From Halichondria panicea (Eukaryota; Porifera; Demospongiae; Suberitida; Halichondriidae), in assembly GCF_963675165.1 (NCBI RefSeq), contig NC_087379.1, positions 1,802,201-1,866,200 on the forward strand: a stretch of DNA of 64,000 nt, in the 5' to 3' direction. The notes beneath the pieces were generated by a model. That model was given only the letters and a program-made list of their open reading frames with translations, had not been told where the DNA came from and searched no databases. The stretch's first letter is position 1; each line of letters opens with the position of its first letter. Below, one piece after another: positions 4,061-58,400 of the stretch. The position numbers and the translations under genes were made by a program.

Positions 4061-7000
4061 TCTACTCACCTGCATGCCATGGCACTGCGTTTACAGCATG
4101 GATAGCCTTCATACAACAAGTTATTAATTTTAATAGTGGCAGAATTTCATGTTAAACCTTCGTTGTCAAATAAAAACGAGCAAAAGCTAAGAAGCTTGTG
4201 ACTGGGTCTGCTTACCTGGATGCTCTAGCACTGCGTTTACAGCATGGGTAGCCTCCACACAACAAGTCAGTACTTCTAATAGTGGCAGCTTTCGGTGTTA
4301 AAGCTTCGTTGTCTAATAAAAGTGAGCAAAATGTAGCTTGAACAGAACTTGCACATGCGTTACTTATAACTGAAGTGATCCTGTACCAGGTCCAGAAACA
4401 ATGGAACAGGGTCACTAAAGTAGAAAGCTGTATATACCAGGAACAATATTGGAACAGGGTCACTAAACCAGAAAGCTTGCTTTAGCTGACTGGGATCCAT
4501 GCAGGACCTGGAGCCATACTTCTCTGAGACTCCATGCTTCTTTGCTGTGATCCTAATCCACAGTGCATATATTTATAGTACTACTACCTGTTCTCAAATG
4601 TTTCAGCATGCATCCAGTCTGGTTTAGTTTTATTGCTCCTGAGTTGCTGTGCAAGTCATGCATGATGATGATAACAACATCACTATATGCACTGCATTAT
4701 ATCAGTCTTCTGGTTTCTTTATAATCATGTCACCAGCCGAGGGTTTGCACTTTAGTGCTCTAGTTTGTTTGTTTGTTTGTTTGTCACAGGTATATCTACT
4801 CACCTGGATGCCACAGCGCTGCGTTTACAGCATAGATAGCCTTCACACAACAATATCTTGATTTAAATAGTGGCAGATTTTGATGTTAAAGCTTCATTGT
4901 CGAGCAAAAGCTAAGAAGCTTGAACTTGCACGTTGGCAGCTAGCTACTAGCTACACATGGCCTTGATTACGTAGTTGCAGCTGAAGTGATCCTTACCAAA
5001 TATAATTATAGTAGAAAGCTAAAATTGTGACTGGTTGTTGGCTGACTCTGGATCCTATACTCCAGCCTGGCAGGAGCCATACCTCTTTAAGTCTAAGCTC
5101 CAGGCTTCTTTGCTGTCATCCCTGTCCACAGTGCATGTCTAATGTGACATGTACCACTCAATGTTTCAGCATGCCTCCAAGTCTGGTTTAAGTTTTATTG
5201 CTCTTGAGTTGCTGTGCTAGTCATACATGCTACATGCACTGCATTATCACTCTTCTGGTTTCTTTATTATCATGTCACCAGCCGAGGGTTTGCACTTTAG
5301 TGCTCTAGTTACCCGAGGCGCGCGTGGGCGGCCACGGGTATAGTAGTATGTTGGTCTGTTTGTTTGTTTGTTTGTTTGTTTGTCACAGGTATATCTACTC
5401 ACCTGGATGCCACATCACTGCGTTTACAGCATGGATAGCCTTCACACAACAATATCTTGATTTAAATAGTGGCAGATTTTGCTGTTAAAGCTTCTTTGTC
5501 GAGCAAAAGCTAAGAAGCTTGAATAAGCTTGTGACTAGGTCTGCTTACCTGGATGCTCTAGCACTGCGTTTACAGCATGAGTAGCCTCCACACAACAAGT
5601 TAGTACTTTTGATAGTGACAGCTTTCGGTGTTAAAGCTCCTTTGTCTAATAAAAGCTAGCAAAATGTAGCTTGAACAGAACTTGCACATGCGTTACTTAT
5701 AACTGAAGTGATCCTGTACCAAGAAAACGATGGAACAGGGTCACTAAAGTAGAAAGCTGTATATACCAGAAACAATGGAACAGGGTCACTAAAGTAAAAG
5801 CTTGAATTATAGCTCCTGCTGCTGACTGGGATCCTACTCCATGCAGAACCTGGAGCCATACTTCTCTGAGACTACAGGCTTCTTTACTGTGATCCTAATC
5901 CACAGTGCATATTATCTATAGTACCACTACCTGTTCTCAAATGTTTCAGCATGCCTCCAGTCGAGTCTGGTTTAGTCCTGAGTTGCTGTGCAAGTCATGG
6001 CATGATGATGATAACAACATCACTATATATGCACTGCATTATATCAGTCTTCTGGTTTCTTTATAATCATGTCACCAGCCGAGGGTTTGCACTTTAGTGC
6101 TCTAGTAACTGAAGTGATCCTGTACCAAGAACAATGGAACAGGGTCACTAAAGTAGAAAGCTATATATACCAGGAACAATGGAACAGGGTCACTAAAGTA
6201 GAAGCTTGAATTATAGCTCCTGTGCTGCTGACTGGGATCCTACTCCATGCAGAACCTGGAGCCATACTTTTCTGAGACTCCAGGCTTCTTTACTGTGATC
6301 CTAATCCACAGTGCATAATTATATCTATAGTACCACTACCTGTTCTCAAATGTTTCAGCATGCCTCCAGTCTGGTTTAGTCCTGAGTTGCTGTGCAAGTC
6401 ATGCCAGTGCATGATGATGATAACAACATCACTATAATATATGCACTGCATTATATCAGTCTTCTGGTTTCTTTATAATCATGTCACCAGCCGAGGGTTT
6501 GCACTTCAGTGCTCTAGTTACCCGAGGCGCGTGGGCGGCCACGGGTATAGTAGTCTGTTGGTTTGTTACCCGAGGCGCGCGTGGGCGGCCACGGGTATAG
6601 TAGTATGTTGGTCTGTTTGTTTGTTTGTTTGTTTGTTTGTCACAGGTATATCTACTCACCTGGATGCCACATCACTGCGTTTACAGCATGGATAGCCTTC
6701 ACACAACAATATCTTGATTTAAATAGTGGCAGATTTTGCTGTTAAAGCTTCTTTGTCGAGCAAAAGCTAAGAAGCTTAAATAAGCTTGTGACTAGGTCTG
6801 CTTACCTGGATGCTCTAGCACTGCGTTTACAGCATGAGTAGCCTCCACACAACAAGTTAGTACTTTTGATAGTGACAGCTTTCGGTGTTAAAGCTCCTTT
6901 GTCTAATAAAAGCTAGCAAAATGTAGCTTGAACAGAACTTGCACATGCGTTACTTATAACTGAAGTGATCCTGTACCAAGAAAACGATGGAACAGGGTCA

Positions 7001-9450
7001 CTAAAGTAGAAAGCTGTATATACCAGAAACAATGGAACAGAAGAGTCACTAAAGTAAAAGCTTGAATTATAGCTCCTGCTGCTGACTGGGATCCTACTCC
7101 ATGCAGAACCTGGAGCCATACTTCTCTGAGACTCCAGGCTTCTTTACTGTGATCCTAATCCACAGTGCATATTATCTAAAGTACCACTACCTGTTCTCAA
7201 ATGTTTCAGCATGCCTCCAGTCGAGTCTGGTTTAGTCCTGAGTTGCTGTGCAAGTCATGGCATGATGATGATAACAACATCACTATATATGCACTGCATT
7301 ATATCAGTCTTCTGGTTTCTTTATAATCATGTCACCAGCCGAGGGTTTGCACTTTAGTGCTCTAGTTTGTTTGTTTGTCTGTTTGTTTGTCACAGGTATA
7401 TCTACTCACCTGGATGCCACAGCACTGCGTTTACAGCATGGATAGCCTTCACAGAACAATATCTTGATTTAAATAGTGGCAGATTTTGATGTTAAAGCTT
7501 CTTTTGTCGAGCAAAAGCTAAGAAGCTTGAATAAGCTTGTGACTAGGTCTGCTTACCTGGATGTTCTAGAACTGCGTTTACAGCATGAGTAGCCTTCACA
7601 CAACAAGTTAGTACTTTTGATAGTGGCAGCTTTCGGTGTTAAAGCTCCTTTGTCTAATAAAAGCGAGCAAAATGTAGCTTGAACAGACTTGCACATGCGT
7701 TACTTATAACTGAAGTGATCCTGTACCAAGAACGATGGAACAGGGTCACTAAAGTAGAAAGCTGTATATACCAGGAACAATGGTCACTAAAGTAGAAGCT
7801 TGAATTATAGCTCCTGCTGCTGACTGGGATCCTACTCCATGCAGAACCTGGAGCCATACTTCTCTGAGACTCCAGGCTTCTTTACTGTGATCCTAATCCA
7901 CAGTGCATATATCTATACTGTAGTGGTACTATTATAGTACCACTACCTGTTCTCAAATGTTTCAGCATGCCTCCAGTCTGGTTTAGTTTTATTGCTCCTG
8001 AGTTGCTGTGCAAGTCATACATGATAACAACATCACTATATGCATTGCATTATATTTCTGGTTTCTTTTTAATCATGACACCAGCCGAGGGTTTGCACTT
8101 TAGTGCTCTAGTTACCCGAGGCGCGTGGGCGGCCACGGGTATAGTAGTCTGTTGGTTTGTTTTTTGTTTGTTTGTTTGTTTGTTTGTTTGTCACAGGTAT
8201 ATCTACTCACCTGGATGCCACAGCGCTGCGTTTACAGCATAGATAGCCTTCACACAACAATATCTTGATTTAAATAGTGGCAGATTTTGATGTTAAAACT
8301 TCATTGTCGAGCAAAAGCTAAGAAGCTTGAACTTGCACACTTGCACGTTGGCAGCTAGCTAGCTACACGTGGCCTTGATTACGTAGTTGCAGCTGAAGTG
8401 ATCCTTACCAAATATAATTTTAGTAGAAAGCTAAAATTGTGACTGGTTGTTGGCTGACTCTGGATCTTATACTCCAGCCTGGCAGGAGCCATACCTCTTT
8501 AAGTCTAAGCTCCAGGCTTCTTTGCTGTCATCCCTGTCCACAGTGCATGTCTAATGTGACATGTACCACTCAATGTTTCAGCATGCCTCCAAGTCTGGTT
8601 TAGTTTTATTGCTCTTGAGTTGCTGTGCTAGTCATACATGCTACATGCACTGCATTATCACTCTTCTGGTTTCTTTATTATCATGTCACCAGCCGAGGGT
8701 TTGCACTTTAGTGCTCTAGTTTGTTTGTTTGTTTGTCTGTTTGTCACGAGTATATCTACTCACCTGGATGCCATAGCGCTGCGTTTGCAGCATAGGTAGC
8801 CTTCACATAACAATATCTTGGTTTAAATAGTGGCAGATTTTGATGTTAAAGCTTCTTTGTCGAGCAAAAGCTAAGAAGCTTAAATAACCTTGTGACTAGG
8901 TCTGCTTACCTGGATGTTCTAGCACTGCGTTTACAGCATGAGTAGCCTCCACACAACAAGTTAGTACTTTTGATAGTGGCAGCTTTCGGTGTTAAAGCTT
9001 CTTTGTCTAATAAAAGCGAGCAAAATGTAGCTTGAACAGAACTTGCACATGCGTTACTTATAACTGAAGTGATCCTGTACCAGGTCCAGAAACAATGGAA
9101 CAGGGTCACTAAAGTAGAAAGCTGTATATACCAGGAACAATGGAACAGGGTCACTAAAGTAGAAAGCTTACTTTAGCTGACTGGGATCCATGCATGACCT
9201 GGAGCCATACTTCTCTGAGACTCCAGGCTTCTTTGCTGTGATCCTAATCCACAGTGCATATTATCTATAGTAATACTTGTTCTCAAATGTTTCAGCATGC
9301 CTCCAGTCTGGTTTAGTTTTATTGCTCCTGAGTTGCTGTGCAAGTCATGCATGATGATGATAACAACATCACTATATGCACTGCATTATATCAGTCTTTT
9401 GGTTTCATGTCACTAGCCGAGGGTTTGCACTTTAGTGCTCTAGTTGCAAA
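4060..9450 (-). repeat. Complex tandem array of two long repeat modules
   Basis: Two modules alternate. Module A (copies near 4068, 4799, 5400, 6656, 7408, 8208 and 8760) has, in minus orientation, a segment ending in CATCCAGGTGAGTAG. Module B (copies near 4214, 5545, 6804, 7552 and 8908) ends in CATCCAGGTAAGCAG. Their outer border is a shared 60-bp block ending in GCACTTTAGTGCTCTAG on the plus strand, with TTTG microsatellites and GC hairpins between units. Full units repeat about every 0.75-1.36 kb and shorter ones about every 0.6 kb. Similar frames recur on the minus strand (around 4212-4463, 5656-5859, 6913-7119, 7654-7857 and 8906-9154), all ending near NACASSVQATFC, but they match no protein family I know. 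An inverted copy lies at 20.4-21.8 kb, and partial copies at about 36.95-37.3 and 49.22-49.42 kb. It may be a non-autonomous mobile element that expanded locally. Confidence 0.85.
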
Positions 9451-9454
9451 GGTA

Positions 9455-9900
9455 ATAATTATACTAGTACAAAAATAGACAATACTGACTATAATCTATA
9501 AGGATCTGCTGTTATTATGTTACTATAGCTATTATAGGCTTAGTACAAATATCGTTTTCAGTTTAAATTTGTCAGTCGTATCACTTTCGTGCTTTCTTGG
9601 CACCTGCAATTAGGATACGATAGTTATTGTGCATATGCATGTCACTACTCTACATTTGCTTACTTTGTTGTCCACCATTTCCTTGATCCCCTAGTGCACC
9701 TAATGTGGTCATAATTATTGTAATCAGTATAATTATTATTATTGTAATCTGTATGATAATTAGTTATGACCAAACATTGTTGTAAAAAAGCATTTGTCAA
9801 CAGTATACGTGACATTCATATAAGCCTTAGTGCATGTATAGTGGTACATGTAACTGTATTGGTATGCATGACTCTTGCGCCTCTCCTCTATATATACTAA
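9455..9900. other. Intergenic, nothing recognised
   Basis: AT-rich sequence between the repeat array and the death-domain exon. I see no coding frame, inverted repeat or RNA gene. Confidence 0.4.
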
Positions 9901-9901
9901 G

Positions 9902-10257
9902 CTAAGTGAATGCCTGCATGTAATCACCATTCATTTGTTGAGCTGATCTTTTCCTATCGTTATCACCCTCAATTTTTAAAATGGCTTTCTCGACTTTTAA
10001 GTACAAGGTGTCTAGACCCACAGTATCTGATCTGAGAGCACTTAGGAAAGTGTCAAGGTAGCAGGGACTATCTTCAAACCACTTCAGCAGCATATCACGG
10101 AAACAATGTCTCACAACGTTCGACTGATTTTTTTCCAGAATGGCTTCCAAATTGACTTCAGACAAACCCAGATAATTACCGATGTTATGCCACATGTTCC
10201 ACCCATTATATGCAACTACGTCACATAGAGTGTTGTTGTGAGAGGGGGAGAGTTCGA
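9902..10257 (-). CDS. Death-domain protein, 3'-terminal exon (partial)
   Basis: A minus-strand frame ending at a TAG near 9902 encodes a death-like domain. The markers are W-NIGNYLGLSEVNLEAI, then NVVRHCFRDMLLKWFED, then FLSALRSDTVGLDTLYLKVE, which follow the helix pattern of Death-fold domains (buried tryptophan, LGLS, ML-W and a closing A-L segment). An acceptor (TTCACAG) just before 10257 suggests an internal start, so the ATG further upstream in the frame is not needed. Such domains mediate homotypic protein contacts in apoptosis and innate-immune signalling in the cytoplasm. No upstream exon is recognisable in the next kilobase because a fold-back element occupies it. The domain call is good; the full protein and its partners are unknown. 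Confidence 0.6.
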
Positions 10258-10527: not shown

Positions 10528-11188
10528 TACAGTGCTTTTATGCACCTTTGCAACAAGCTGGTATCACATAGTAAACCACAAATAGTACACATACAAACCA
10601 CAGGCTGCTATACAGGCAAGGAGGAAGTTGTGATGTTGTCTTATTGATGAGCTGTTACATGTAGCTGCTTAAAGGATGTGTTCAATAAAATCTAAGGCTT
10701 ACAGTAAGGACATAAGGTGGAGGATGATACACCACATACTAGGTGTGTCATTATGTGTTATCTTATACAAAACAATAGCTGAAAATCTCAATATGAACCC
10801 CTCTACTGTATGCAGGACTGTGAGGCTTTTTTAGGAAACTAGTACGGTTGAAACATTCAAGGGTATCACAAAAGTACTACTATAAAAGGAACTAAGTGCC
10901 AGAGATAAAATTGTTCTTCTTGAAGCTGTTTTAGAAACACCTAACGATCTAAGACTTACAGTAAGGACATAAGGTCACACATCTGGTGTATCATCCTCCA
11001 CCTTATGTCCTTACTGCATGCATGTAAGCCTTAGATCATATCCTTTAAGCAGCTCATCAACAAGACAACATCACTATTTCTCAAATCCCTCCTTGATAAG
11101 GCGTGTATAGCCTGTGGTTTGTATGTTTACTATTTTGTGGTTTACAATGCGATACCAGCTTGTTGCAAAGGTGCATAAAAGCACTGTA
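10528..11188. mobile_element. Fold-back element with about 210-bp inverted arms
   Basis: Arms at about 10528-10738 and 10979-11188 are imperfect reverse complements, sharing the outer tip TACAGTGC, a TTTTATGCACCTTTGCAA block, and the inner block CTTACNGTAAGGACATAAGG. The inner block occurs a third time at about 10946. The 240-bp spacer encodes a broken transposase start. The structure is a snap-back derivative of a DNA transposon. Confidence 0.85.
10720..10960 (+). pseudogene. Tc1/IS630-like transposase N-terminus, dead
   Basis: The plus frame reads ILYKTIAENLNMNPSTVCRT, VRLF, a stop, ETSTVETF, a second stop, then KELSAR-KIVLLEAVLE. This matches the two-helix DNA-binding region of Tc1/mariner-superfamily transposases, where an NLN-(x)n-STV-RT helix-turn-helix is followed by an ETGTVE-like linker and an L-L-E-VLE helix. 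Two in-frame stops (TAG and TAA) are present and the catalytic domain is absent. It is a relic of the autonomous parent of the fold-back element. Confidence 0.65.
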
Positions 11189-11189
11189 C

Positions 11190-13910
11190 TCTCATCTCTA
11201 TCATAATTATACTCTTGATTATACCAATGTGAATAGTTATTAAATAGCCGATATAATCCCTGGGAAGTGTGGACAGATGGTGCATAAATTAGCTGTTAAT
11301 AAGTATACAGGCTCTAGGGTGCAATCTCACAATCACTTCTATACAAGATTTGGTAATCTATACCAATTGGTAATTCAAATGCCATATACAAAACCCCAGA
11401 AACAGTGAGACAGTGTATCTATACCAGTTACTATACACATTTTATATATACTTTGATCCTAAAAAATAGGCAATGGTTGTCACTACTGTAAACACATAGA
11501 GTACTGGGAGGAATTCCCGGACGGAAGAGTAGGCAGACCGTAGCAAAAAAGCATGAATCTCTATGTGGAGAGTTTTATCTATATTATATAGTTGCCAGTG
11601 GCCTCTGCTGTGACATCTTTCTGCCTTTAGAAGTCACTCTAAGCGTTCGTATCAGCACACAACCAAAATCCGGAAGTTCACTAAAAGAAGGCGTTTTACA
11701 TTAATTGGAAATAGTCGTCACTGTCGTCACTGTCCGCTTATATTGTCTTGTGAACTGCTACTTTTCAGGCTGCGCTCATTTCCAAAGAAAAACACTAACT
11801 TTCGCTGTTTTTGCTGCACAGTCGTTGCACAAGTGATGTTTGATACTTATTAAAAAAAAAGATCTCTATGTCATGCATTTAAAGTACAAAAGTTGGCGTA
11901 AGTGTCTGCTAATACCCTCCAGTGCTCTAATGGGAAAAGGGGCTGGGTTTTACACATGAACTCCTTTTATGAATCTCTATATATGCATGCTATGACTGTG
12001 AACGTTGAGAGAGCATCACTTCCAATTCTCCCTGACCAGCTAGGCTACCATCCAGCTGAGAACCTTTAAAATCCTACAATCAACGGTACCAGAAGTGGGC
12101 GTGGCCACACATTTTAATGCGCACACTTTTATTAACCTGCACAACATTGGTGGCTACGGCCCTGCACATGCATGCTAGGGGCATATCTATAGAAAAACAA
12201 GTATAGGTAAAGAAAAATTACGCAAGCGTGATTTTTGGGGCTACGTCCACTTTTGGGGCTATGTCCACTTTTGCGTCATTTCAAGTGTTGTTTGCAAGTA
12301 AAACCGTACTTTTACGGTGCTAGTCCGCACTGCAGCAGTGCTAGTTAAGCTTTTAGCACAGCTTTAAAAAAGACACGACTGCATGCATTTGATAGGTTTA
12401 ACAGCTATATATTCAGCTAGTACCAAGTCTATATATATTAGGAGTGCATATAATTATAGCTTCAGTTCATTGAGTGAGACACACAGAGTACAGATAACTG
12501 ATTAAATTCTCATATATTATTTGCTAGTGCATGAGTGTCATGGTAAAATATTTCTGTGCACTATGAATCCACTCACTTCGCCCATAGGAATTAAGGGGAA
12601 CCCCCAGAAACAGTGAGACAGTGTGTCTATACCAGTTATACCCACATACACAATCACATATTCTGTATAATTATTATACTTTGATCCTAGCAAGTTTAAA
12701 ACCATACAACAACACCCCACATTCTGCAATTAGGAATATAATAGGCTCAGTTCTTAAGGATTATTTTACCGAGCCTATATAATTATTTTAGCATTCATAA
12801 TATTATAGCTAGTGAGTGTTGATAGTGAAACATACATAATTATAATTATACAGCATAATTTATTTCTATGCACTATAATTATATGAATCCACTCACTTCG
12901 CACCCCATGGGAAGGTGCAGCTGGCTGCAGGGGTGGCTGATCTGGGCCTGAGCCTGATCCTGATCCAAGCGAGTCTATACCCATGTGCGTGAAAGATAAA
13001 GAGTAGTATAATTTTACACACTGCTTTGCATGTGCATGATCGGAGAAGGTGACACTCTTACACTAAAAAAACCACTCAATGGGTAAAGCTATAATGCATG
13101 GTTTTATGAATGGCTTAAGATGCTAAATCATAACAGTTACTATACATGCAGATACAACTTAGTGGCTAAATAGCTCTAAAATGCAATCGTAAAGTCACAG
13201 AATTATAATGATGCATGTGACTAAGCTAGATTTAGAAAGACACAAAAAATAATATATATAAGATATTCTGAATCTAAACACACGATCTAGACCAGTAGAT
13301 CTAGCTAGGTATAATTATAGCTAGCTATAGCTTGTATAAACAGCTTGCAAACTTCCAGTTCCAAGTCTATATGTCCAGCCTAGCTTGCTGAGTTTTATTA
13401 GATCTCTATATATACGTGGACAGTCCAACATCTCTAGCTCTGCATGCATTGCCCATGCTCATTTTCACCCTTCTACCACCTTTCTATACCCTCACGCGAC
13501 TTTCCGATATACAAGCTCTCCTTATTCCTAACTCGACCTCTATTTCTTTTTTTATTCCTACAATATTTAAACGATTGTGATGAAGAACAGAAAAAGGAGA
13601 GCCTGCATATGTGTAAAGGCTATACATGGTGGCCGCTATACCAATTAGGTGACATATTTTCTTGTCTGCGATTTCACTGTTTAGCTCATTTTTCTGGTAT
13701 TAAATTCGCTCAAGTTGTGATTACTCATAACGTTTCTCACAAGGAGATCATTACATTTTCCAATTATCTGCGTGTGTACATTTAATTTTACTCTGATTGG
13801 CAGAAAATTATAGCAGAGCTTAATACCCTCGAAATAATACTATACAGATTCTTATACTCACCATTTGCAGTTGGTGTTGTAGTGAAAGTCCGATGTTCTA
13901 CAAATAAAAA
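11190..13910. other. Intergenic, with two small dispersed repeats
   Basis: Two repeats are visible. One, containing CAGAAACAGTGAGACAGTG and TACTTTGATCCTA, occurs at about 11390-11465 and 12605-12690. The other, containing GAATCCACTCACTTCGC, occurs at about 12560 and 12885. A 113-codon open frame at 13444-13785 is rich in F and L and matches nothing I know. I see no gene here. Confidence 0.45.
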
Positions 13911-13915
13911 AAACA

Positions 13916-15883
13916 TTATTGAGACTTAATTGCAAAAATCGTTTTACCATAATAAGTGTCTGCAATGAATGAGTGATCAATACTGGAAATCTCCACAGCC
14001 AATCCCTTGTTTTTCCTTTCAAAAAAGCCAATCAGAGCTTTTCTTTCCTCGTCAGTGATGCCACGATGCTGCTCCACTTTCTCCTTGGTATCGTATTCAG
14101 TCTTAAGCCAGTCAGAATCAAACCTAAACATTAATTATACAGGGTGCATGATGGTTTAGTTATTATAGTCGTAATTATATATTGCCTCACCAGTAATGCA
14201 TTACACTGTCAGCGTCATAATCAGATCCTGTTCCTAGATCTTCATTTGTTTTAACATCCCTTTTATATTGGGTGCCAAAATACTTTGTCATTTCCTCTTC
14301 TTTTAAAAATTTTCCAATGTTGTTCCAGAAAAAAGCTTGCTGATGCTCATGATTCAGACCTAAAGCATGGCCAAACTCGTGCATCACTAGGTACTCCTTG
14401 TACCTGTCATCACCAGTCAGATCCAGCCATATTGTAGCATTCTCCTCCTTCTCTCCTTTTGGAACCGTTTCAGCATCTGTACCAACTTTAGTACAGGATT
14501 GACCAGGCTCTGCACATGCATGTACAGAGAACATAATAAATGCAAATTTCAGCTAACTTAATCACCCATGCAACTAATTAAATAAAAATGTTGCTGTAAA
14601 TTACTTTGAAACCACACACGAATGTCGGAATCCATTGCGGTTAAAACTGGTACAAAAGCGGGTACTTTTTCTTTCCTCTCCAGAGGAATAAAAGGAGGCA
14701 GCTTGGTGTTCCAGAGGTTGGCTAGGGTGAGAATGTCACTAGTGTCAATCATATGCCCACGTTTACCACCAGAAACAGGGTACTTGGAACCACTGTATGT
14801 CCAGGACCAAGAGGTTTCTATGGGGTTCAGGAAGCAAACCTTGAGGACAGTTTTATTCCACAGCTTGTTATGTGGGCAGATCCCCCCGGCTGTTCCTGCT
14901 CTCTGATCTTGAGGCACCACCTCTTGGTGGTCTTGCTCAAAGCAGGTTTGACATACATTCTGAAATAATTATGAGTAGTCATGAAGGGTAAATTTAACAT
15001 AAGGGAATTAGCTTTACCACTGTAGGTTTATTACAATCTGGTAGGGCCTCTTCAGCTTCAGGGGGAACTGGAGTCGGCACAAAAACTGGTTTCCTCTGCA
15101 TTAAATTGTAATCAAGATAGTATACGGTAACTATAATAATATAGAATCTAAATGTTGAAACCATGCAGGGGCTCCTATAGGGGGAGCATGATTGGCCAGG
15201 GGAAAAACACCGAAAAGCATAGAAACAAGAAACAGATGAGAGCATAACTCCAATCATGGCCAAGACTGTATAATTATAGAGAAGCTTCTCGAGACCCTTA
15301 CTTACTTATATTATGCACACTTATAGTCAGTCCCTTTGAGGTGAATTGCGATATTAGTACACTTTATGTGAAAAGTGCTAAAAAGCTACAGAAATATAAT
15401 ATATAGTGCCAATCCTAGGCTTTTAACAATAAAGGGAGGTTTGGAATTTTTTCTTTTAGCTATACGCAATTTAGCTAGTGTATTTTAAATGCCATGCATA
15501 ATTATACCTGCACAGCAGTTATCAAAGTTTGCATGCAGTATCGAGATAGACTACATGCATGCACGATAACTGTATGTGTCCAAGCATTAATTGGCACTTT
15601 TACGAAACTCTGGTATACGTCTAACCAGCATTTGTAAGCATTCATTCACGCTCACCGTAGTTAGCACTGCATTTATTCTGCATCCATTTTGTACCTCCTC
15701 AAATTTTTCCACATCTTTGTAGTCATCGAACTTTTCAGTCCATATCTGCAGATGAGAGATGCTGCCTTTCTCGAGCTGAAATGTGTCTTCAATACGAACT
15801 ATAAGGGTATCAATACTATCAGATCTAGTAACATCAACCTCTTTTTTGTTACGATTAATAAGCACTAGAGCAGTAGCAGCCAT
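13916..15883 (-). CDS. Astacin-like zinc metalloprotease with a beta-grasp-like N-terminal domain
   Basis: Five exons join in phase: 15883-15656, 15095-15018, 14959-14605, 14509-14191 and 14123-13916, giving 395 residues. Exon 1 (residues 1-76) lacks a signal peptide and has the strand/helix rhythm of a ubiquitin- or PB1-like fold (ALVLINRNKKEVDVTRSDS to NGCRINAVLTT). Exon 2 is a proline-rich linker (FVPTPVPPEAEE). Exon 3 carries the upper protease lobe, ending SDIRVWFQ. Exon 4 holds HEFGHALGLNHE, the full HExxHxxGxxHE zinc site with the catalytic glutamate, and the Met-turn SVMHY, as in astacins (M12A). Exon 5 is a short C-terminal lobe. Every junction has GT/AG borders and consistent phase, and no lesions are visible. 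The enzyme should hydrolyse peptide bonds, and its location is inferred to be cytosolic. The N-terminal domain call is inference; the protease call is firm at motif level. Confidence 0.8.
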
Positions 15884-31349: not shown

Positions 31350-31515
31350 GATAGACTAATGAATATTAGCAAATTCATTCCCCTGGGTAACTCCCCCAAA
31401 ACAGCAGCTACGTCATTAAAACAGCCCAAGAAATTTCCCTCTAAGCAATACACCAATGGAATTCCCCCCTATATAGGCAAACAGTAACTATAAAAGTGCA
31501 TCAATCAAAACAACA
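31350..31515 (+). promoter_or_regulatory. LRAT gene promoter, copy 1
   Basis: A block conserved upstream of both intact LRAT genes: AGACTAATGAATATT, CCCCTGGGTAACTCCC, then TATATAGG with ACTATAAAAG about 20 bp further on and an A-rich leader before the ATG. The TATA-like motif sits about 85 bp before the start codon. The same block is at 34960-35120 and, without a gene, at 39.28-39.43 kb. Confidence 0.6.
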
Positions 31516-31557
31516 AGATTACAGGTGATCTACAAATTCGTAACAAGATCGATAGCA

Positions 31558-32196
31558 ATGATGGAAGAGCACAATTCTACAAATGAGTGCACTGTTGTAC
31601 TCGGAGAGAGGTCTCACAGCTGCCCTACATTGAATGAAGAAGATGACTCGGCTAGTAGAGTACACTATATCAGTCATCTACAGCGACGGAGAAACCTGAA
31701 ACCAGGCGACCATATCTACGTGTATCGAGTCCTCCATTTATACCAGCACCACGGTATCTTCACGGGGGAGGAGGGAGAAGGAGAGGTCATTCACGTCAGT
31801 GGACACAAGTTCAGCAAGACTTCGGCTACTGTCACCTCCAGCAGTTTATCAGAGTTCCTTAGTGGTGGACTGCTACATCTGGTCTCCTACAACGATCCTC
31901 ACACAAATTTCAAGATACGAGGAACTTGTCACACAAGTTGTAGCAGACCAGCTGAAGATGTGGTGAGCACAGCAAAGGAATTCTTAAATAATCCAGACAG
32001 CTGGGGCAAATATAATTTAGCATATCGGAACTGTGAAACTTTCGCTTACTACTGCAAAATAGGGACAGAATCTTTGATCGGTAACACAAGCGTTAACTAC
32101 AAGCCTCGGGAACGCTCAACAACCAACAGAGTACAAGGTACAGGACCACTTGCCAAACATTTACTAGCTACATTAGTGGATGAGGAAGAATTTTGA
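31558..32196 (+). CDS. LRAT-domain (NlpC/P60-type) enzyme, copy 1
   Basis: A single-exon gene of 212 residues. I start it at the ATG at 31558 (MMEEHNS), not at the earlier GTG of the open frame, because the paralog at 35190 begins at the same place. After a serine-rich N-terminus, LKPGDHIYVYR opens the LRAT fold. HHGI supplies the catalytic-type histidine, VIHVSG the second histidine, and NCETFAYYC near residue 159 the nucleophile cysteine of the NCEHF motif. Family members (LRAT, PLAAT) transfer acyl groups from phospholipids or act as thiol phospholipases at membranes. Unlike many relatives it shows no clear C-terminal membrane helix. The conserved TATA-containing block lies upstream. The substrate cannot be told from sequence. 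Confidence 0.85.
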   Translation: MMEEHNSTNECTVVLGERSHSCPTLNEEDDSASRVHYISHLQRRRNLKPGDHIYVYRVLHLYQHHGIFTGEEGEGEVIHVSGHKFSKTSATVTSSSLSEFLSGGLLHLVSYNDPHTNFKIRGTCHTSCSRPAEDVVSTAKEFLNNPDSWGKYNLAYRNCETFAYYCKIGTESLIGNTSVNYKPRERSTTNRVQGTGPLAKHLLATLVDEEEF

Positions 32197-32199
32197 GAA

Positions 32200-33800
32200 T
32201 GGATTATGCATGCTAATTAAAATATATGTCACACACATGCACATTGATATACATTATAATAGTGAGGCTGTACCTGTAATACAAGTTGATTAAATTTTTT
32301 CTCGTTATACATATTATGTGCTGATATATATCAATGTAAAAATTAATGGTGTTCAATCACAGAGTACTTAATTTAATGATTATATATATGGACTGATAAA
32401 AAAAAATAAGGTAGAAAAGATTGTTAACGCAATAGCTTTGTTGTGTGTGTGTGTGTGCATGTTCCTGATCCAATCTACTATATTCATTTACGTATAATTA
32501 TGCCAAGCGGTATAGAGCGTAAACATAGTTACAAGATGTCACCCGTAGAGTGGAGTGGGGCTGTCCCGGAGGAGTATCCATCGTTCTTACAAGCCATGTA
32601 TGTCACAGTATTCATGAAACTTAAGTCTATGAAAATCACCTAGCTTGACAGAATCAAGATCGAGGCAGTCAGTGTTCAATGACTTAGTAAGGTAATAATA
32701 ATAATAGCAACTGCACAAAAAAACAGAACACAAGGACAGATAATTCTAGACTAAATTAAGCAACACTAAATATAGAACAGTATCACATGATGTCCAAACT
32801 ATGTAATTGTCATTTCATTACTGACAGTAAAGCCCACCATAACTTCTATATATAGGTAATATAGTGACAATGGCAGCATAGATAAAAGAGAGAAATGGAT
32901 AGGAAACACTTAGCGCCTCGAAAACTATCCGCGTTTCACTCCGGGATTTATTTGAGGCCACCTACTGTATACATGGAAAAAAATGGCCAAAAACACACAA
33001 ATGATAATTGTCTTACTGTCAGTGTGAGAATCCTGCTGCTGAACTTTTACTTCTGTTTAATATACTTGAGGCTATATGACACACAGTACACTACTTATTT
33101 AGGTTGTTCTAGCTGTATTATAGGTCAGAAACATCCTGAAGTAGTGAAAGCAATGCTCATTCTGTACACCTCTAGCTACTTCCTAGCAATCCCAAAATTG
33201 TTTCTGTTATTTCTAAATGATACCTAATATAAAGGGACATTAAATTGAAGTTGTAGGGAGACTTGGATTTTCCAAAACAGCCGTAGAAGTAGTTTTCCTG
33301 GGGGTAGGGAGCGAAACACGGCTGTATCTAAGCTAGCTCAGTGTATGTATTTTATATGCAGCTTATGGGATCACGTGATCAGTTTCCAATCCATGTAGCT
33401 CTTTTATCCCTATAATGGCAGTATAGCTTCATACAAGGAAGATCTAATTCCAGTTACACTATAGCCATTTCACCATTAAAATTAAAATGAGGAGACCATA
33501 TTTCAAAGTTGTTTGTAATAGATATAGCATGATACCGAGTGCATGTTTTATACAGGCACAAGCACAATGAAAGTTGCCTGTGTATTTCAAGTGATAATTT
33601 ATATCACGATGACCCCTTACCACTTGACATCATGCCTCGAGACTACGCGACCGTGTAATAATAATTACAACAATAGGGAACTTTATGACTTTTATTACAC
33701 CATTGACAACGTGATATAAATTACTTACAAAGCATTGTGTGTGATCATATGTAATGCGCTATTATAATTATCTATTGGATAGAATTACGTACACTGATTA
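32200..33800. other. Intergenic, nothing certain
   Basis: A TG run lies near 32440, and a copy of the dispersed motif (GTCCCGGAGGAGTATCC) near 32562. A 110-codon frame at 32895-33227 shows no domain. I see no supported gene. Confidence 0.4.
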
Positions 33801-33810
33801 TTTGCTATAG

Positions 33811-34111
33811 CTGCATCTACTGCACTTGAAAGAGAGGAATATAAGACTGATGAAACTCAGTTAATCAAAACCTCTGATCTGATACTTATAGCTGATTATT
33901 TTGATGATGTGGAACTCTACTTGGAAGCATTTGAACTGTCTACTGCTGAGCAAACTGATGTCAAAAACTTAATAACAAAGGGCACTCAAATAGCAATGAA
34001 TGAATGCTTATCTATTTGGAAACGACATAACCCTTCCACAGCTACAGTCAGGACATTGCTAAATATCTTAAAAAAATTGAGAAAAGAAGAAATAGCATTA
34101 AAAGTTCGAAG
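33811..34111 (+). CDS. Death-domain exon (partial gene)
   Basis: After an acceptor (TTTGCTATAG at 33810) an open frame encodes TASTALEREEYKTDE, then ADYFDDVELYLEAFELS, then MNECLSIWKRHNPSTATVRT and LLNILKKLRKEEIALKV, before a donor (GAAG then GTACTG) at 34111. The MNECLSIWK, NPSTATVRTLL and final L-EEIAL pattern is that of helices 4-6 of a Death-fold domain. The gene is on the strand opposite to the 9.9-kb death-domain exon. No partner exons are recognisable on either side, so it may be a fragment or part of a gene with unrecognised exons. A signalling adaptor role is inferred from the fold. Confidence 0.55.
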
Positions 34112-34119
34112 GTACTGTT

Positions 34120-34955
34120 TACTAACTGCTATATATATTATGTACGTACGTATATAGCTATATACACAGTTGTTTGAAAATTAATCTTTGGTCACAAAAA
34201 AATAAAAGTCGATCAATGGCCAAGTCTGTCGATCATTATAATCATTATACTACGCCCACTCACTGAAACATCTGTGTTTGTGTCTCCCCGTCAGACGGGC
34301 ACACTATATCGAGGAAGTATAATTATACATTATACAACTCCAGTCCTCAGTCAGGTAGCAAAAAGAGGACTTTCCCGGGGGAAGTACATGGCTATATATA
34401 ATAATAATAGTCAGTATAATTATAATTATTGGAAAGCACACAATGCAACTGTTATACAGTCAGAGCCTCCAAGTATACGGTTACTTCAGGATTTATACGG
34501 ATTTCTCTTTTCTAATACGGTTATACGGAATTAATTCGGATATAGACATGTGCTGCACTGTATACTTGTGACCTTTTGTCAGCTTACAGAATAACTGGCC
34601 TTAGTTTTGTGAAATGGGCAGTGAATTAAGTGTCTAGTAGCATCCCTTATATATACAGCTGCATGTAGTAACTCTATATGTCCTATAAATATATTATACT
34701 GGTGGGGAGTCTGATATTGATATAAATCCCCTCCCCCCCCCCCCCCCGGGGCGACTATTATAAAACCACTAAACAGTTTACCATGCTTTTACATCGTTTA
34801 TACTGAAAAATTAACTTAAGTTTCTACTTGCATGGGGAGGCTATGGCTATATATGCATGTGCAGTGCAGTGCAGTATCTGTACTCAAACAATGGCTGACT
34901 GACAAGACAGAGTGGGATTTACACGTACTAAATTCATTGTTATAATGTATATGCA
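34120..34955. other. Intergenic, with a long C run
   Basis: It holds a copy of the CCCGGGGGAAGTAC motif near 34375 and a homopolymer C run of about 18 near 34729-34748. No gene is recognised. Confidence 0.45.
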
Positions 34956-35120: not shown

Positions 35121-35189
35121 CCTTATCATATACAAGTGTTTAGATAATTTAAACAAGTGTTTAGATAATTTATAACAAGATCTATAACA

Positions 35190-35843
35190 ATGATGGAAGA
35201 ACACAATTCCACAAATGAGTGCACTGGTGGACTCCGAGAGAGGTCTCACAGCTGCCCTACATTGAATGAAGAAGATGACTCGGCTAGTAGAGTACACTTT
35301 GCCAGTCATCTAAAGCGACGGAGAAACCTGAAACCAGGCGACCATATCTACGTGTACCGAGTCCTCCATTTATACCAGCACCACGGTATCTACACAGGGG
35401 AGGAGGAAGAAGGAGAGGTCATTCACGTCAGTGGACAAAGATTCAGCAAAACTTTGGCTACTGTCACCTCCAGCAGTTTATCAGAGTTCCTTAATGGTGG
35501 ACTGCTACATCTGGTCTCCTATAACGATCCACACACAAAACTCAAAATACGAGGAACTTGTCACACGAGTTGCAGCAGACCAGCTGAAGATGTGGTGAGC
35601 ACAGCAAAGGAATTCTTAAATAATTCCGGGAGCTGGGGCAAATATAATTTAGCGTATCGGAACTGTGAAACGTTTGCTTACTACTGCAAGACAGGGGCAG
35701 AATCTTTGATCGTTAACTCCAGCATCAACGATAATGATCTTCGGGAATTCGTGATAAGTAACAGAGTTCAAAGTACGGGACCATTGGCCAGACGTATACT
35801 ACCTCGTCGGGACAGTTCAAACGATGACAAAGAAGATAAATGA
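35190..35843 (+). CDS. LRAT-domain (NlpC/P60-type) enzyme, copy 2
   Basis: A single-exon gene of 217 residues beginning MMEEHNS and closely similar over its full length to the gene 3.6 kb upstream, so the two arose by tandem duplication with their promoters. LKPGDHIYVYR starts the domain at residue 47. The probable catalytic set is H65 in HHGI, H79 in VIHVSG and C159 in NCETF. The C-terminus is more acidic and charged (DSSNDDKEDK) than in the first copy, where the last 40 residues differ most. No membrane helix is obvious. The fold predicts acyltransfer or phospholipase-type chemistry on membrane lipids; the partner and substrate are unknown. No lesions are visible. Confidence 0.85.
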   Translation: MMEEHNSTNECTGGLRERSHSCPTLNEEDDSASRVHFASHLKRRRNLKPGDHIYVYRVLHLYQHHGIYTGEEEEGEVIHVSGQRFSKTLATVTSSSLSEFLNGGLLHLVSYNDPHTKLKIRGTCHTSCSRPAEDVVSTAKEFLNNSGSWGKYNLAYRNCETFAYYCKTGAESLIVNSSINDNDLREFVISNRVQSTGPLARRILPRRDSSNDDKEDK

Positions 35844-43541: not shown

Positions 43542-45125
43542 TTATCTGATATAGTCCACATCTTTGATCCCATACTTGGTTGCCAGTAGCGACACCGCTC
43601 GCTTTGCCGATTCCAGTCCACTCACAATCCATGCAAGGGAGCTGGCCAGATGCCCACCAGCAAAATAGATATTCCCTTGAGGCTTGACCATTGCAGGGTA
43701 GAACTCGTGGAACTGTCCAGGCAGGTAGAATGTCATTCCCCACCAATCTATTTCAAAAGCTTGGCTCAGGAAATGTTCACTCCCTGGTTCACCTCCAGCG
43801 TATTCTTGGGCAATGTCCACTTCCGGATAGAGTGATTGAAGATCGTGCAGAGCCCTCTTTATCTTGTCCTCTTTCGACAGAATTCTCCACTGCATAGAGT
43901 CACTGTTCCAATTGTAGACATGAAGTACTCCTTTTTCTTTTTCTCCCACTCCGTAGTCAGGATATATAACCCAGTGAATTGGCAAGTCTGTCGTTGACTG
44001 ACCACCAAACGAGGGTGGGGGGTTTAAATCAGGTCGCTCCCAAAATCTCGAGTGAAATCGCAAGCCAAATTTACTCATAGGATCAAACAACGTTGCCCTC
44101 ATAGCTTGTTCTGCGTCCGTACCAAAATATGGTCTTTCGGGAATGAGACGAAGTAAAGGCAAAGGAACAGCCATAATCACAGCATCAAATTCTTCGTAGA
44201 TCAGATCTTTTGTTTTGGGTTGAGAAAATCCAATTTTAACACTCTGATTTGACTGTGATAGCGACTCGACTTTTGAGTTTAACAAAATCACTCCATTTCT
44301 TCTTTGAACGGCTTCAGCACACAATTCTGGGAGCTTGGACATACCTCCTTTGATAGTTTTCCATGTTAGCTGGAAATCAAAAATGCCATCAAAGAAAAAC
44401 TGTTCCAACAGTCCATCACGCAAGTCGTTGGTCTGACAACACATAACTTCAACATAGTTGATTTTCTTGGAACTCCAACCCAGATCACGAGAGAGGTATT
44501 CCCGAAAAGACATGTCGTGGTATTTCATCAAAGATGCTTCAAAATTGGTCTCAAATGCTTCAGAGAGAGGTTTCAGTGCCTCAAGATATAATTTATTGGC
44601 TTCTCCATCGGCTACAGCATCTTCCGGAAATCCAAGCTCTTTGTAGTGTTCAGCAGCATACTTAGCAGACATAATGCAACCATTCTTCTGTTTCGTATTG
44701 TTGACAAAAACTCGGTTTCCCTCTAAACTCAAATACTTGAAATCCATCAGCTCAATAGGATCGTCTGGGAACTGTTTGTTGAGAAACTCAATGAGTGAAA
44801 ATACAGGTCGGTGACTATCAATGCATGGAATTCTCATAGCGCCAGCTTCAAAATACTGATTTGGCTCAGACGAGAAACGGTAAGTGTACACAGAGCCTCC
44901 TACTCTGTCACTGGCATCGAAAATCTTGACTTCAACTCCTGGAAAGTGTTGCTGTAAAAGAATCGCTGAATATAAGCCAGACATTCCACCCCCCACGATG
45001 CCGACACTAAATTTAGGAGGGAGGGAGAGGGGAGCATGGTCCTCTGTGCGGTTCAGACCTGCAGCTCTGTCCAGGTACTCTTGGTATTTACTGAGCAGAG
45101 ATGCTGAGGAAGTGCTATTCGCCAT
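43542..45125 (-). CDS. Flavin-containing amine oxidase / L-amino-acid oxidase-like
   Basis: An intronless gene of 527 residues. Residues 41-51 (VGIVGGGMSGL) form the dinucleotide-binding GxGxxG turn, followed by KIFDASDRVGGSVYTYRF, the second FAD motif of the amine oxidase family. The C-terminal QGNIYFAGGHLASSLAWIVSGLESAKRA matches the closing FAD-contact region, although the usual GE before it reads GG. Family enzymes oxidise amines or L-amino acids to imines, giving hydrogen peroxide. The length is typical. No clear signal peptide is present (MANSTSSASLLSKYQEYL), so I infer a cytosolic enzyme. The start ATG at 45125 lies 69 bp from a 20-bp perfect hairpin upstream. Lack of introns is unlike the adjacent BBS2 exons and could reflect retrotransposition or horizontal transfer; neither can be decided here. 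Confidence 0.85.
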   Translation of the reverse strand: MANSTSSASLLSKYQEYLDRAAGLNRTEDHAPLSLPPKFSVGIVGGGMSGLYSAILLQQHFPGVEVKIFDASDRVGGSVYTYRFSSEPNQYFEAGAMRIPCIDSHRPVFSLIEFLNKQFPDDPIELMDFKYLSLEGNRVFVNNTKQKNGCIMSAKYAAEHYKELGFPEDAVADGEANKLYLEALKPLSEAFETNFEASLMKYHDMSFREYLSRDLGWSSKKINYVEVMCCQTNDLRDGLLEQFFFDGIFDFQLTWKTIKGGMSKLPELCAEAVQRRNGVILLNSKVESLSQSNQSVKIGFSQPKTKDLIYEEFDAVIMAVPLPLLRLIPERPYFGTDAEQAMRATLFDPMSKFGLRFHSRFWERPDLNPPPSFGGQSTTDLPIHWVIYPDYGVGEKEKGVLHVYNWNSDSMQWRILSKEDKIKRALHDLQSLYPEVDIAQEYAGGEPGSEHFLSQAFEIDWWGMTFYLPGQFHEFYPAMVKPQGNIYFAGGHLASSLAWIVSGLESAKRAVSLLATKYGIKDVDYIR

Positions 45126-45193
45126 TGTTTCCAGGATGACTGAGCAAATTGGATGACCTCCATTACTAGCCGTGTATAATGAAAAGTTGGTTA

Positions 45194-45244
45194 GTCTCGA
45201 ATACCCGCCTCAATCTATTTTAGGTTGAGGCGGGTATTCGAGAC
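45194..45244. repeat. Perfect hairpin just upstream of the amine oxidase start
   Basis: The arms 45194-45213 and 45225-45244 are perfect 20-bp reverse complements (one arm GTCTCGAATACCCGCCTCAA) around an 11-base loop. The lower arm ends 69 bp before the ATG, so it would lie in the promoter or 5' UTR. It may be a protein-binding palindrome or a tiny decayed element. Confidence 0.9.
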
Positions 45245-48297: not shown

Positions 48298-49152
48298 CTA
48301 CGAAAAGATTTGCACTCTATTGTTGTCACGATCACACACATACACCACACCACACTGGTCTACTGCTATGCCAAAAGGCCCATATAACTGTCCTAGTCCA
48401 GATCCTTTTGATCCAAACGATTTGAGAAACACTCCCTCACATGTGAACACTGAGACACGACCGTTCCCATTCTCCCCCACATACACCAAATCATTACTGT
48501 CCACACAGATGCTGACAGGCCCGTCAAGTTCTCCATTTCCACTGCCTTCCTTCCCAAATTGCCGCAGATAGACACCATCGGGTGTGAAAACTTTCACTCG
48601 AGCATTAGCAGGTTCAGCTACATACACACAACCACTACGATCGGATGCAACGTCATAGGGATGGTACAAATCTCGATTAGCACTGCCTTCACTGCCAAAC
48701 TTGCTGGAGAAAGTGAGGTCGGAGTTGAAGATGTTAACACAGTCAGCACCGCTATTAACAACATACACCTTCCCATTGACACTGTTGACACACACACCAT
48801 GAGGAAAATTTAACTGTCCAGGACCCGCATCAACACGACTACCTACTGCTGCTATCAGGTCTCCGCCACGTGAGAACTTCAACAGTCGACAATTACCAGT
48901 ATCTACCACTAGAATGTTGTCATCACCGTCCACTGCCACACCATAAGGACTCATCTCCTTAAAATCTGTGCCTCGAGTGTCTAATGTTCGCAGCTTCTCT
49001 CCTCTGGGGCTAAATATTGAGACAACACTAGTATTGGCTTCAGTCACAATTATCTCTCCAGCTTGGTTGAGTGCCACTCCATAAGGTTTCTTGATAGTCT
49101 TGATATCACTTCCTAGTTTATTGATCGGAGTCTTGACTGCCTCATTGCCCAT
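48298..49152 (-). CDS. NHL-repeat protein lacking the TRIM module
   Basis: An intronless gene of 284 residues, started at the ATG at 49152 (MGNEAVKTPINKLGS). It is made entirely of NHL-type beta-propeller blades: repeated patterns such as PYGVAVDGDDNILVVDTGNC and GGDLIAAVGS, ending FGIAVDQCGVVYVCDRDNNR. It aligns throughout with the C-terminal third of the TRIM-NHL protein at 55.6-57.8 kb. The short sequence before its ATG (a GACACAAAACTGA block on the plus strand) matches the leader of that longer gene, so it looks like a copy with the RING, B-box, coiled-coil and filamin regions removed in frame. A propeller alone could bind RNA or protein as a competitor of the full-length protein; that is inference. 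No lesions are visible. Confidence 0.8.
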   Translation of the reverse strand: MGNEAVKTPINKLGSDIKTIKKPYGVALNQAGEIIVTEANTSVVSIFSPRGEKLRTLDTRGTDFKEMSPYGVAVDGDDNILVVDTGNCRLLKFSRGGDLIAAVGSRVDAGPGQLNFPHGVCVNSVNGKVYVVNSGADCVNIFNSDLTFSSKFGSEGSANRDLYHPYDVASDRSGCVYVAEPANARVKVFTPDGVYLRQFGKEGSGNGELDGPVSICVDSNDLVYVGENGNGRVSVFTCEGVFLKSFGSKGSGLGQLYGPFGIAVDQCGVVYVCDRDNNRVQIFS

Positions 49153-49219
49153 TGACACAAAACTGAAGGGGGGAGAAAAGGATAAGTTATGGGGCTCGTT
49201 TATCTTTACTGGCCTACTA

Positions 49220-49425
49220 GAATAAAGGACGCATGTAGAGTGCTAGCTCAAGCTTTTGTACGATAAAAAAGCTCTAACATCAAAATCTGCCACTTAGGCT
49301 ATCTATGCTGTAAATGCAGTGCTATGGCACCCAGGTAAGTAGATGCACATGTCATACACAAACAAACAAACCAACAGACTATACTATACCCGTGGCCGCC
49401 CACTTGCGCCTCTGGTTAGAAAAAT
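49220..49425 (+). repeat. Isolated copy of the GC-hairpin/splice-donor repeat
   Basis: GCTGTAAATGCAGTGCTATG, then CACCCAGGTAAGTAG near 49330, an ACAAACAAAC run and ACCCGTGGCCGCCCAC near 49389 follow the same order as at 21.6-21.78 kb. It lies just upstream of the NHL-only gene. Confidence 0.7.
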
Positions 49426-57799: not shown

Positions 57800-57849
57800 T
57801 GACACAAAACTGAGGGGGGAGAGAAAAGGATAACAATAGGCTAAAAAGG

Positions 57850-58400
57850 GGGCGTGTCAAGTTTTATAATAATAATAACAAAGAATTCAAGCAACAAAAA
57901 CTACAAACGAATGTATCAGAACATGTACAATAATTATGCTCACCTTTATAAAAGTGTTTAGTAGTAGAAAGAAAGCTTAAAGCTTGGCAAAAGCAGCTAT
58001 AGACTCACAGCTCTCATGCACAGTGACAGGTCAGGTGATGCATGCACAACAATATTCATAGGATCAAAGTATTGATTATGGTTAGACCATAATGGTACAC
58101 ACATACTTGTGGCTATATTGCCTAGCAACATTCTACACCCACTCTATTGCTAGCCCTCTGACCAGTTGCCTGAGATACAGACAACACACACTCATACAAT
58201 GTGACCCTCCATGTTAACAACACTCCATACCATGTTGAAATTGATCTCACATCATGCACCCATGCACACACGCAAGATCACAAAATATATTCAAATTCAT
58301 CATAATACAAAAATCAGCATACATACATACATACATGCGGATGATATTATTATAATCTCTATGTGTATAATTATGTTAGAATACTCTTAATTGGGTCCAT
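57850..58400. other. Upstream region of TRIM-NHL gene, duplicated block
   Basis: The stretch 57990-58290 matches 49440-49740 upstream of the NHL-only gene (CAGTGACAGGTCAGGTGATG, ATGCACAACAATATTCATAG, CTAGCAACATTCTACACCC). It may carry promoter elements shared by both genes. Confidence 0.5.

What the first reader, a model, noticed from the sequence alone, without database searches (positions are those of the whole stretch)
13916..15883. Astacin-like protease fused to a beta-grasp-like domain and lacking a signal peptide
The five-exon model joins in phase at every junction. The HExxHxxGxxHE zinc site and SVMHY Met-turn are typical of secreted astacins, yet the N-terminus is a 76-residue, probably ubiquitin/PB1-like, domain with no signal sequence. 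An intracellular astacin-like enzyme recruited through a beta-grasp domain would be unusual.
Basis: partly seen in the sequence, partly recalled or inferred. Interest (0 to 1): 0.72.

Follow-up and report, generated by a model that had tools for sequence, protein, structure and literature searches.

The report
Ubiquitin-fold plus bacterial-type metalloprotease gene
An animal-type split gene encodes a zinc protease resembling bacterial rather than ordinary animal enzymes, behind a ubiquitin-shaped domain and apparently meant to work inside the cell; a nearby death-domain-like exon may or may not belong to it.

Summary
The exon chain and zinc site are real: the four junctions join in phase, and the two junctions inside the catalytic domain are supported by alignment with relatives. 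Exon 1 (residues 1-76) is supported as ubiquitin-fold by a medium-confidence model. Two corrections. (1) The protease is not a typical animal astacin. Among solved structures it is nearest to bacterial myroilysin, and about two thirds of 80 bacterial relatives show no obvious signal peptide (54 from the first ATG), so a missing signal is common there. It lacks the animal EXXRXDRD and FXGDI motifs but has a pre-catalytic cysteine aligned in 62 of 69 relatives, suggesting a cysteine-switch zymogen. UBL-metzincin-Death is therefore possible but unproven: the Death score is below cut-off, the linking exon has its own ATG, the intron would be long, and phase-1 candidate exons are no commoner than others. 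New variant of a known kind; moderately interesting.

The parts
15656..15883 (-). Exon 1: ATG and ubiquitin-fold (UBL) domain, residues 1-76; no C-terminal GG
15018..15095 (-). Exon 2: proline-rich linker, residues 77-102
   Evidence: acceptor 6 of 12 pyrimidines
14605..14959 (-). Exon 3: prosegment with candidate switch cysteine, start of catalytic domain
14942..14944 (-). Cys108, aligned with a cysteine in 62 of 69 bacterial relatives; candidate cysteine switch (in the two-sequence alignment its neighbour Cys105 takes that place)
14191..14509 (-). Exon 4: active-site exon
14346..14381 (-). Zinc site HEFGHALGLNHE
14193..14207 (-). Met-turn SVMHY
13948..14123 (-). Exon 5: end of catalytic domain (Asp376, Tyr384 aligned in 69 of 69); donor at 13948/13947, or read-through to the stop at 13916
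13862..13897 (-). Candidate exon 6 (36 nt, phase 1-1), strong acceptor and GTGAGT donor; codon use not coding-like
12897..12974 (-). Candidate exon 7 (GSGSG linker, phase 1-1), weak acceptor; could instead be part of a first exon from ATG 12984
9902..10257 (-). Candidate exon 8: Death-like domain (Pfam Death E 0.046, below cut-off), stop at 9902
9664..9699 (-). Possible alternative tail exon 9 after a donor at 9928/9927
9581..9603 (-). Possible alternative last exon 10, ending SAKKARK

Best explanation
Inferred mechanism: the enzyme is made as an inactive zymogen in which the conserved cysteine of the prosegment (Cys108, or its neighbour Cys105) sits on the catalytic zinc. The UBL, at the outer end of that prosegment, docks the zymogen to a partner. 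Cleavage, oxidation or pulling away of the prosegment then frees the zinc and switches the protease on inside the cell. Shown: exon chain in phase, zinc site and Met-turn, UBL fold at medium confidence, nearest solved relatives, conserved cysteine. Inferred: cytosolic location, latency, docking, activation, substrate. Whether the protein goes on into a Death-like domain is open.
For: Exon phases and splice borders. Pfam Astacin above cut-off. PDB: three myroilysin chains at 1.4e-9 to 2.2e-9, next best tolloid-like 1 at 0.0055. Of 69 relatives aligned: prosegment cysteine in 62; Trp136, Gly230, zinc histidines, Met324, Asp376 and Tyr384 in 69 (cysteine, Trp136 and domain end recounted with three longer versions of the query, same counts). 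Cysteine-switch latency of myroilysin as reported in the review PMC9848320 (passages). Exon 1 model and its Foldseek matches. No Sec-like N-terminus in the model.
Against: No transcript supports exon 1 to exon 2. The UBL model is single-sequence (mean pLDDT 66.5; the other four models score 39.2-52.0), its Foldseek E-values never reach 0.001 and rmsd in the shown rows is 4.5-6.4 A; no sequence relative of the UBL was found (one chance-like match). The relatives were chosen by similarity to this protein and by motif from a collection without animals, so they cannot show that it is closer to bacteria than to animals; only one search is unselected, and it covers solved structures only. Which of Cys105 and Cys108 is the counterpart depends on the alignment.
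Confidence: 0.6

Rival explanations
1. The gene is longer: exon 5 is spliced at 13948, through exons 6 and 7, into the Death-like exon 8, giving UBL - metzincin - linker - Death (541 residues, or 552 with the other tail). The Death-like domain would gather the zymogen on a death-fold scaffold, as with initiator caspases.
For: The donor lies one residue after the last conserved residue of the domain. Exons 6, 7 and 8, and even a direct 5-to-8 join, are all phase 1. Exon 8 has no in-frame ATG ahead of its domain, so it needs an upstream exon. Pfam Death is the only family listed for that frame at E up to 1 (0.046). Linker exon 7 and tail exons 9-10 have coding-like codon use, though they are very short. 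An AATAAA lies at 9323, after the Death-like exon.
Against: Death score is 14.3 bits against a cut-off of 22.6; AlphaFold of exon 8 is poor (47.9) and Foldseek finds no death fold. The 7-to-8 intron would be 2639 bases, while Amphimedon introns average 327 bp and genes lie a median 587 bp apart (PMC4432959, passages; species of the window not established). Candidate exons with strict splice borders in this stretch, counted by distinct donors, are 3, 2 and 3 for phases 0, 1 and 2, so phase 1 is not special. Exon 6 codon use is not coding-like. AATAAA at 13556 could end the shorter transcript.
Confidence: 0.35
2. Exons 7 and 8 are a separate small gene: a first exon starting at ATG 12984 and running through exon 7 splices into exon 8, encoding a free Death-like adaptor next to the protease gene.
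For: In-frame ATG ten bases upstream of candidate exon 7; the exon 7 acceptor is the weakest of the nine compared (5 of 12 pyrimidines); AATAAA at 13556 and 13399 between the two.
Against: No promoter or transcript evidence; the gap to exon 8 is just as long; the ATG has C at -3.
Confidence: 0.3
3. The protease is a secreted enzyme after all: its first exon starts at ATG 15257 and runs without a splice into exon 2, supplying a signal peptide; exon 1 belongs to another transcript.
For: The open frame into exon 2 has, after a Met, a hydrophobic run.
Against: Its codon use is worse than most non-coding stretches; part of it resembles another place in the window, like a repeat; exon 1 ends in a clean donor in the right phase for exon 2.
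Confidence: 0.12
4. Decayed or never-expressed copy with no function.
For: No expression data were available.
Against: No stop or frame break over 385 codons in five exons; the zinc, Met-turn and domain-end residues are kept.
Confidence: 0.08

Closest known systems
Myroilysin (M12A, Myroides; PDB 5CZW, 5GWD, 5ZJK)
   Same: Best solved-structure match (1.4e-9); zinc site and Met-turn; held inactive by a cysteine according to PMC9848320
   Different: Bacterial enzyme; secretion recalled, not checked; the matched chains are 213-252 residues long, too short to carry a UBL as well as prosegment and protease (inference)
Bacterial astacin-like proteins and the Hymenobacter plasmid protein WP_139926228.1
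   Same: Catalytic domain and a cysteine ahead of it align; about two thirds have no obvious signal peptide
   Different: None was seen with a UBL, but only two were scanned against Pfam; L039 carries a GDSL lipase domain
Animal astacins (astacin, meprin, BMP1/tolloid)
   Same: HExxHxxGxxHE and SxMHY
   Different: Here no EXXRXDRD, no FXGDI, no signal peptide in the model; no CUB, MAM or EGF match in Pfam
M35 metallopeptidases of Amphimedon with prokaryotic origin (PMC4784904, passages)
   Same: Bacterial-type metallopeptidase with animal introns in a sponge (as published)
   Different: Different family; treated there under extracellular peptidases
Initiator caspases (only for the longer model; recalled)
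   Same: Protease coupled to a death-fold domain
   Different: Metzincin catalysis, cysteine switch, UBL; not homologous

Membership tests
Astacins, peptidase family M12A (broad) | HEXXHXXGXXH followed by Glu | tested here: met
   HEFGHALGLNHE, residues 264-275
Astacins, peptidase family M12A (broad) | SxMHY Met-turn with Tyr | tested here: met
   SVMHY 322-326
Astacins, peptidase family M12A (broad) | Pfam Astacin above gathering score | tested here: met
   29.8 against 22.5 bits
Typical animal astacin | EXXRXDRD after the third histidine (PMC9848320) | tested here: not met
   EHQQAFFW
Typical animal astacin | FXGDI aspartate switch in the prodomain (PMC9848320) | tested here: not met
   Absent from residues 1-135 (sequence, read by eye)
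Typical animal astacin | Signal peptide | tested here: not met
   None in the model by crude hydropathy; no predictor run; rival ATG 15257 not fully excluded
Myroilysin-like bacterial group | Sequence closest to myroilysin among solved structures | tested here: met
Myroilysin-like bacterial group | Prosegment cysteine as zinc switch | tested here: inconclusive
   Cysteine present and aligned (62 of 69 relatives); myroilysin itself was not in that alignment; switching not testable here
UBL-domain proteins | Beta-grasp (ubiquitin) fold | tested here: inconclusive
   Medium-confidence model, consistent Foldseek matches, best E 6.1e-3
Ubiquitin-like modifiers | C-terminal GG | tested here: not met
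   Exon 1 ends NAVLTT then RKPV
PB1 domain | Pfam PB1 match | tested here: not met
   No PB1 hit at E up to 1; MEKK2 PB1 appears at Foldseek rank 43
Death domain (exon 8) | Pfam Death above gathering score | tested here: not met
   14.3 against 22.6 bits, E 0.046
Death domain (exon 8) | Six-helix death fold | tested here: inconclusive
   Five helices in a model of pLDDT 47.9, no death-fold match

The most novel reading that the evidence does not exclude
The gene makes one UBL - cysteine-switch metzincin - Death protein: a metalloprotease of bacterial type wired into death-fold signalling inside an animal cell, a metal-dependent counterpart of an initiator caspase, activated by induced proximity that strips the prosegment cysteine from the zinc.
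Probability: 0.3. Interest if true: 0.78.

Novelty: new variant of a known kind. Interest (0 to 1): 0.5.

Why it matters
Animal astacins are described as extracellular (PMC9848320, abstract). An intracellular metzincin with a ubiquitin-fold recruiting domain, and a bacterial-type cysteine switch instead of the animal aspartate switch, would show that an early animal lineage put a bacterial-type protease to use in its own cytosol. If the Death-like exon belongs, it would be a non-caspase protease in death-fold signalling, directly testable by RNA and by expression.

Tried and rejected
Whole-genome search: none held. Viral contigs with the catalytic core: no relative; with exon 1: one locus, L002, judged a chance match (residues 5-45, 39% identity, in a GC-rich viral contig). 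Phage records: no match. Plasmids: two Hymenobacter relatives. Other copies of the gene in the window: none beyond chance by blastn (E up to 1e-5) or tblastn (best other E 4.2). PDB sequence search with exon 1 and exon 8: only chance-level hits. Fold search with the exon 8 model: four matches, best E 5.5, none a death fold. Exon 8 against the other Death ORF of the window: 12 residues, no meaningful match. Chain of phase-1 exons as evidence for the longer gene: the first count looked good (3 candidates against a mean of 0.46 in 200 shuffles), but counted by distinct donors it is 2, reached by 6.3% of 300 shuffles and by 6.6% of 183 real control stretches (stretch and phase), and the other two phases give 3 each; rejected as evidence. 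The splice thresholds were set after seeing exons 6 and 7. My first exon borders were off by one at exons 3 and 4; corrected. In one search the query was cut at Tyr385, which could have pulled its end into line; repeated with longer queries, same result. PB1 and the lipoate-ligase C-terminal domain (Pfam E 0.016, below cut-off) were considered for exon 1 and rejected. Papers: seven searches; listed of found: 1 of 1, 13 of 13, 3 of 3, 20 of 63, 2 of 2, 12 of 128, 6 of 40. No title or abstract start that I saw describes an astacin-like protease fused to UBL or Death; that is all I can say about print. The one paper holding Amphimedon, astacin and death domain (PMC8195603) has astacin once, in a reference title. 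Of the papers that I opened I saw passages only.

Full report
Anatomy. On the minus strand, exons 15883-15656, 15095-15018, 14959-14605, 14509-14191 and 14123-13948 have GT/AG borders and join in phases 0, 0, 1, 2. The product has a start codon directly after an in-frame stop, a 76-residue first domain, a proline-rich linker (77-102) and a metalloprotease (about 103-385). The zinc site is at 14381-14346 and the Met-turn at 14207-14193. Pfam Astacin scores above its cut-off.

First domain. A single-sequence AlphaFold model of exon 1 (mean pLDDT 66.5, order strand-strand-helix-strand-strand; the other four models are worse) matches mostly ubiquitin-fold entries in the 50 rows shown (best E 6.1e-3, prob 1.00, rmsd 4.5-6.4 A). 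No convincing sequence relative was found in Pfam, PDB or viral contigs. It does not end in GG, so it is more likely a docking domain than a tag. PB1 is possible but has no Pfam match.

What kind of protease. Against all PDB sequences the three best are myroilysin chains (1.4e-9 to 2.2e-9); animal tolloid and BMP1 follow at 0.0055-0.014. With the plasmid relative L001 I examined 81; one had no start codon. Of the other 80, 26 have a hydrophobic N-terminus from the first ATG and 30 from any start, by a crude hydropathy rule; by the same rule the query has none (1.94 against 2.2). So a missing signal peptide is common here. I aligned the 69 that are 200-460 residues long (11 dropped for length). 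Trp136, Trp185, Gly230, the zinc histidines, Glu265, Ser322, Met324, Asp376 and Tyr384 are shared by all 69, Tyr326 by 66, His325 by only 30; a cysteine ahead of the domain, aligned with Cys108, by 62. The counts for the cysteine, Trp136 and the domain end did not change with three longer queries. In a two-sequence alignment with the Hymenobacter protein the cysteine falls on Cys105 instead. These relatives were chosen by similarity to the query, so only speaks without that bias about bacteria against animals. The animal features EXXRXDRD and FXGDI, given in PMC9848320 (passages), are absent. [quoted passage not shown] It also proposes that astacins arose in Holozoa and that bacterial ones came by transfer from animals, so the direction of any transfer is open.

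How it most likely works. Shown: fold family, active-site residues, prosegment cysteine. Inferred: the cysteine holds the zinc, the UBL at the tip of the prosegment docks the zymogen, and removal of the prosegment activates it in the cytosol.

Does it go on? The last conserved residue (Tyr384) lies one residue before a GT donor of phase 1. Downstream on the same strand lie candidate exons 6 (13897-13862) and 7 (12974-12897), and exon 8 (10257-9902), which resembles a Death domain (E 0.046, below cut-off) and has no in-frame ATG ahead of its domain. All are phase 1. Against this: the fold prediction of exon 8 is poor and matches nothing useful; the last intron would be 2639 bases, where Amphimedon averages 327 (PMC4432959, passages; that the window is Amphimedon is not shown here); an in-frame ATG at 12984 precedes exon 7, whose acceptor is the weakest, so exons 7-8 may be a gene of their own; and phase-1 candidates are not commoner than those of the other phases. 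An AATAAA at 13556 could end the short form, one at 9323 the long one. Amphimedon is reported to retain introns often, so both forms could exist.

Context in print. Amphimedon carries 76 genes with M35 metallopeptidase domains, 56 of them candidates for prokaryotic origin and most with spliceosomal introns (PMC4784904, passages), and 357 TRADD-N proteins, most of whose architectures include Death-like domains (PMC8195603, passages). The passages that I saw do not describe this protein. The listings (32 and 48 capped) show no paper on this domain pair.

Verdict. What remains unusual is the partner domain and a bacterial-type protease inside an animal-type gene; the Death link would make it much more so and is open.

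Noticed in passing
33798-34157 (+): Open frame with a Death domain just above the Pfam cut-off (23.1 against 22.6 bits).
   Followed up: partly
31477-32193 (+) and 35169-35840 (+): Two very similar open frames (by eye); the first matches LRAT (E 1.8e-18), the second was not scanned.
   Followed up: partly
55559-57856 (-) and 48301-49242 (-): Long open TRIM-NHL-like frame (RING, B-box, filamin, NHL) and a second frame with NHL repeats.
   Followed up: no
43545-45209 (-): Long open flavin amine oxidase frame of 555 residues (E 8e-42).
   Followed up: no
10528-11188: Inverted repeat, arms 10528-10756 and 10967-11188, 76% over 245 columns, between candidate exons 7 and 8; perhaps a mobile element.
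   Followed up: partly
5500-9300: Several long direct repeats with a shared core (read by eye).
   Followed up: no
L039, L047, L032: Bacterial relatives of 749-779 residues whose N-terminal parts look alike by eye; in L039 it is a GDSL lipase (E 3.2e-9) fused to the astacin-like domain.
   Followed up: partly
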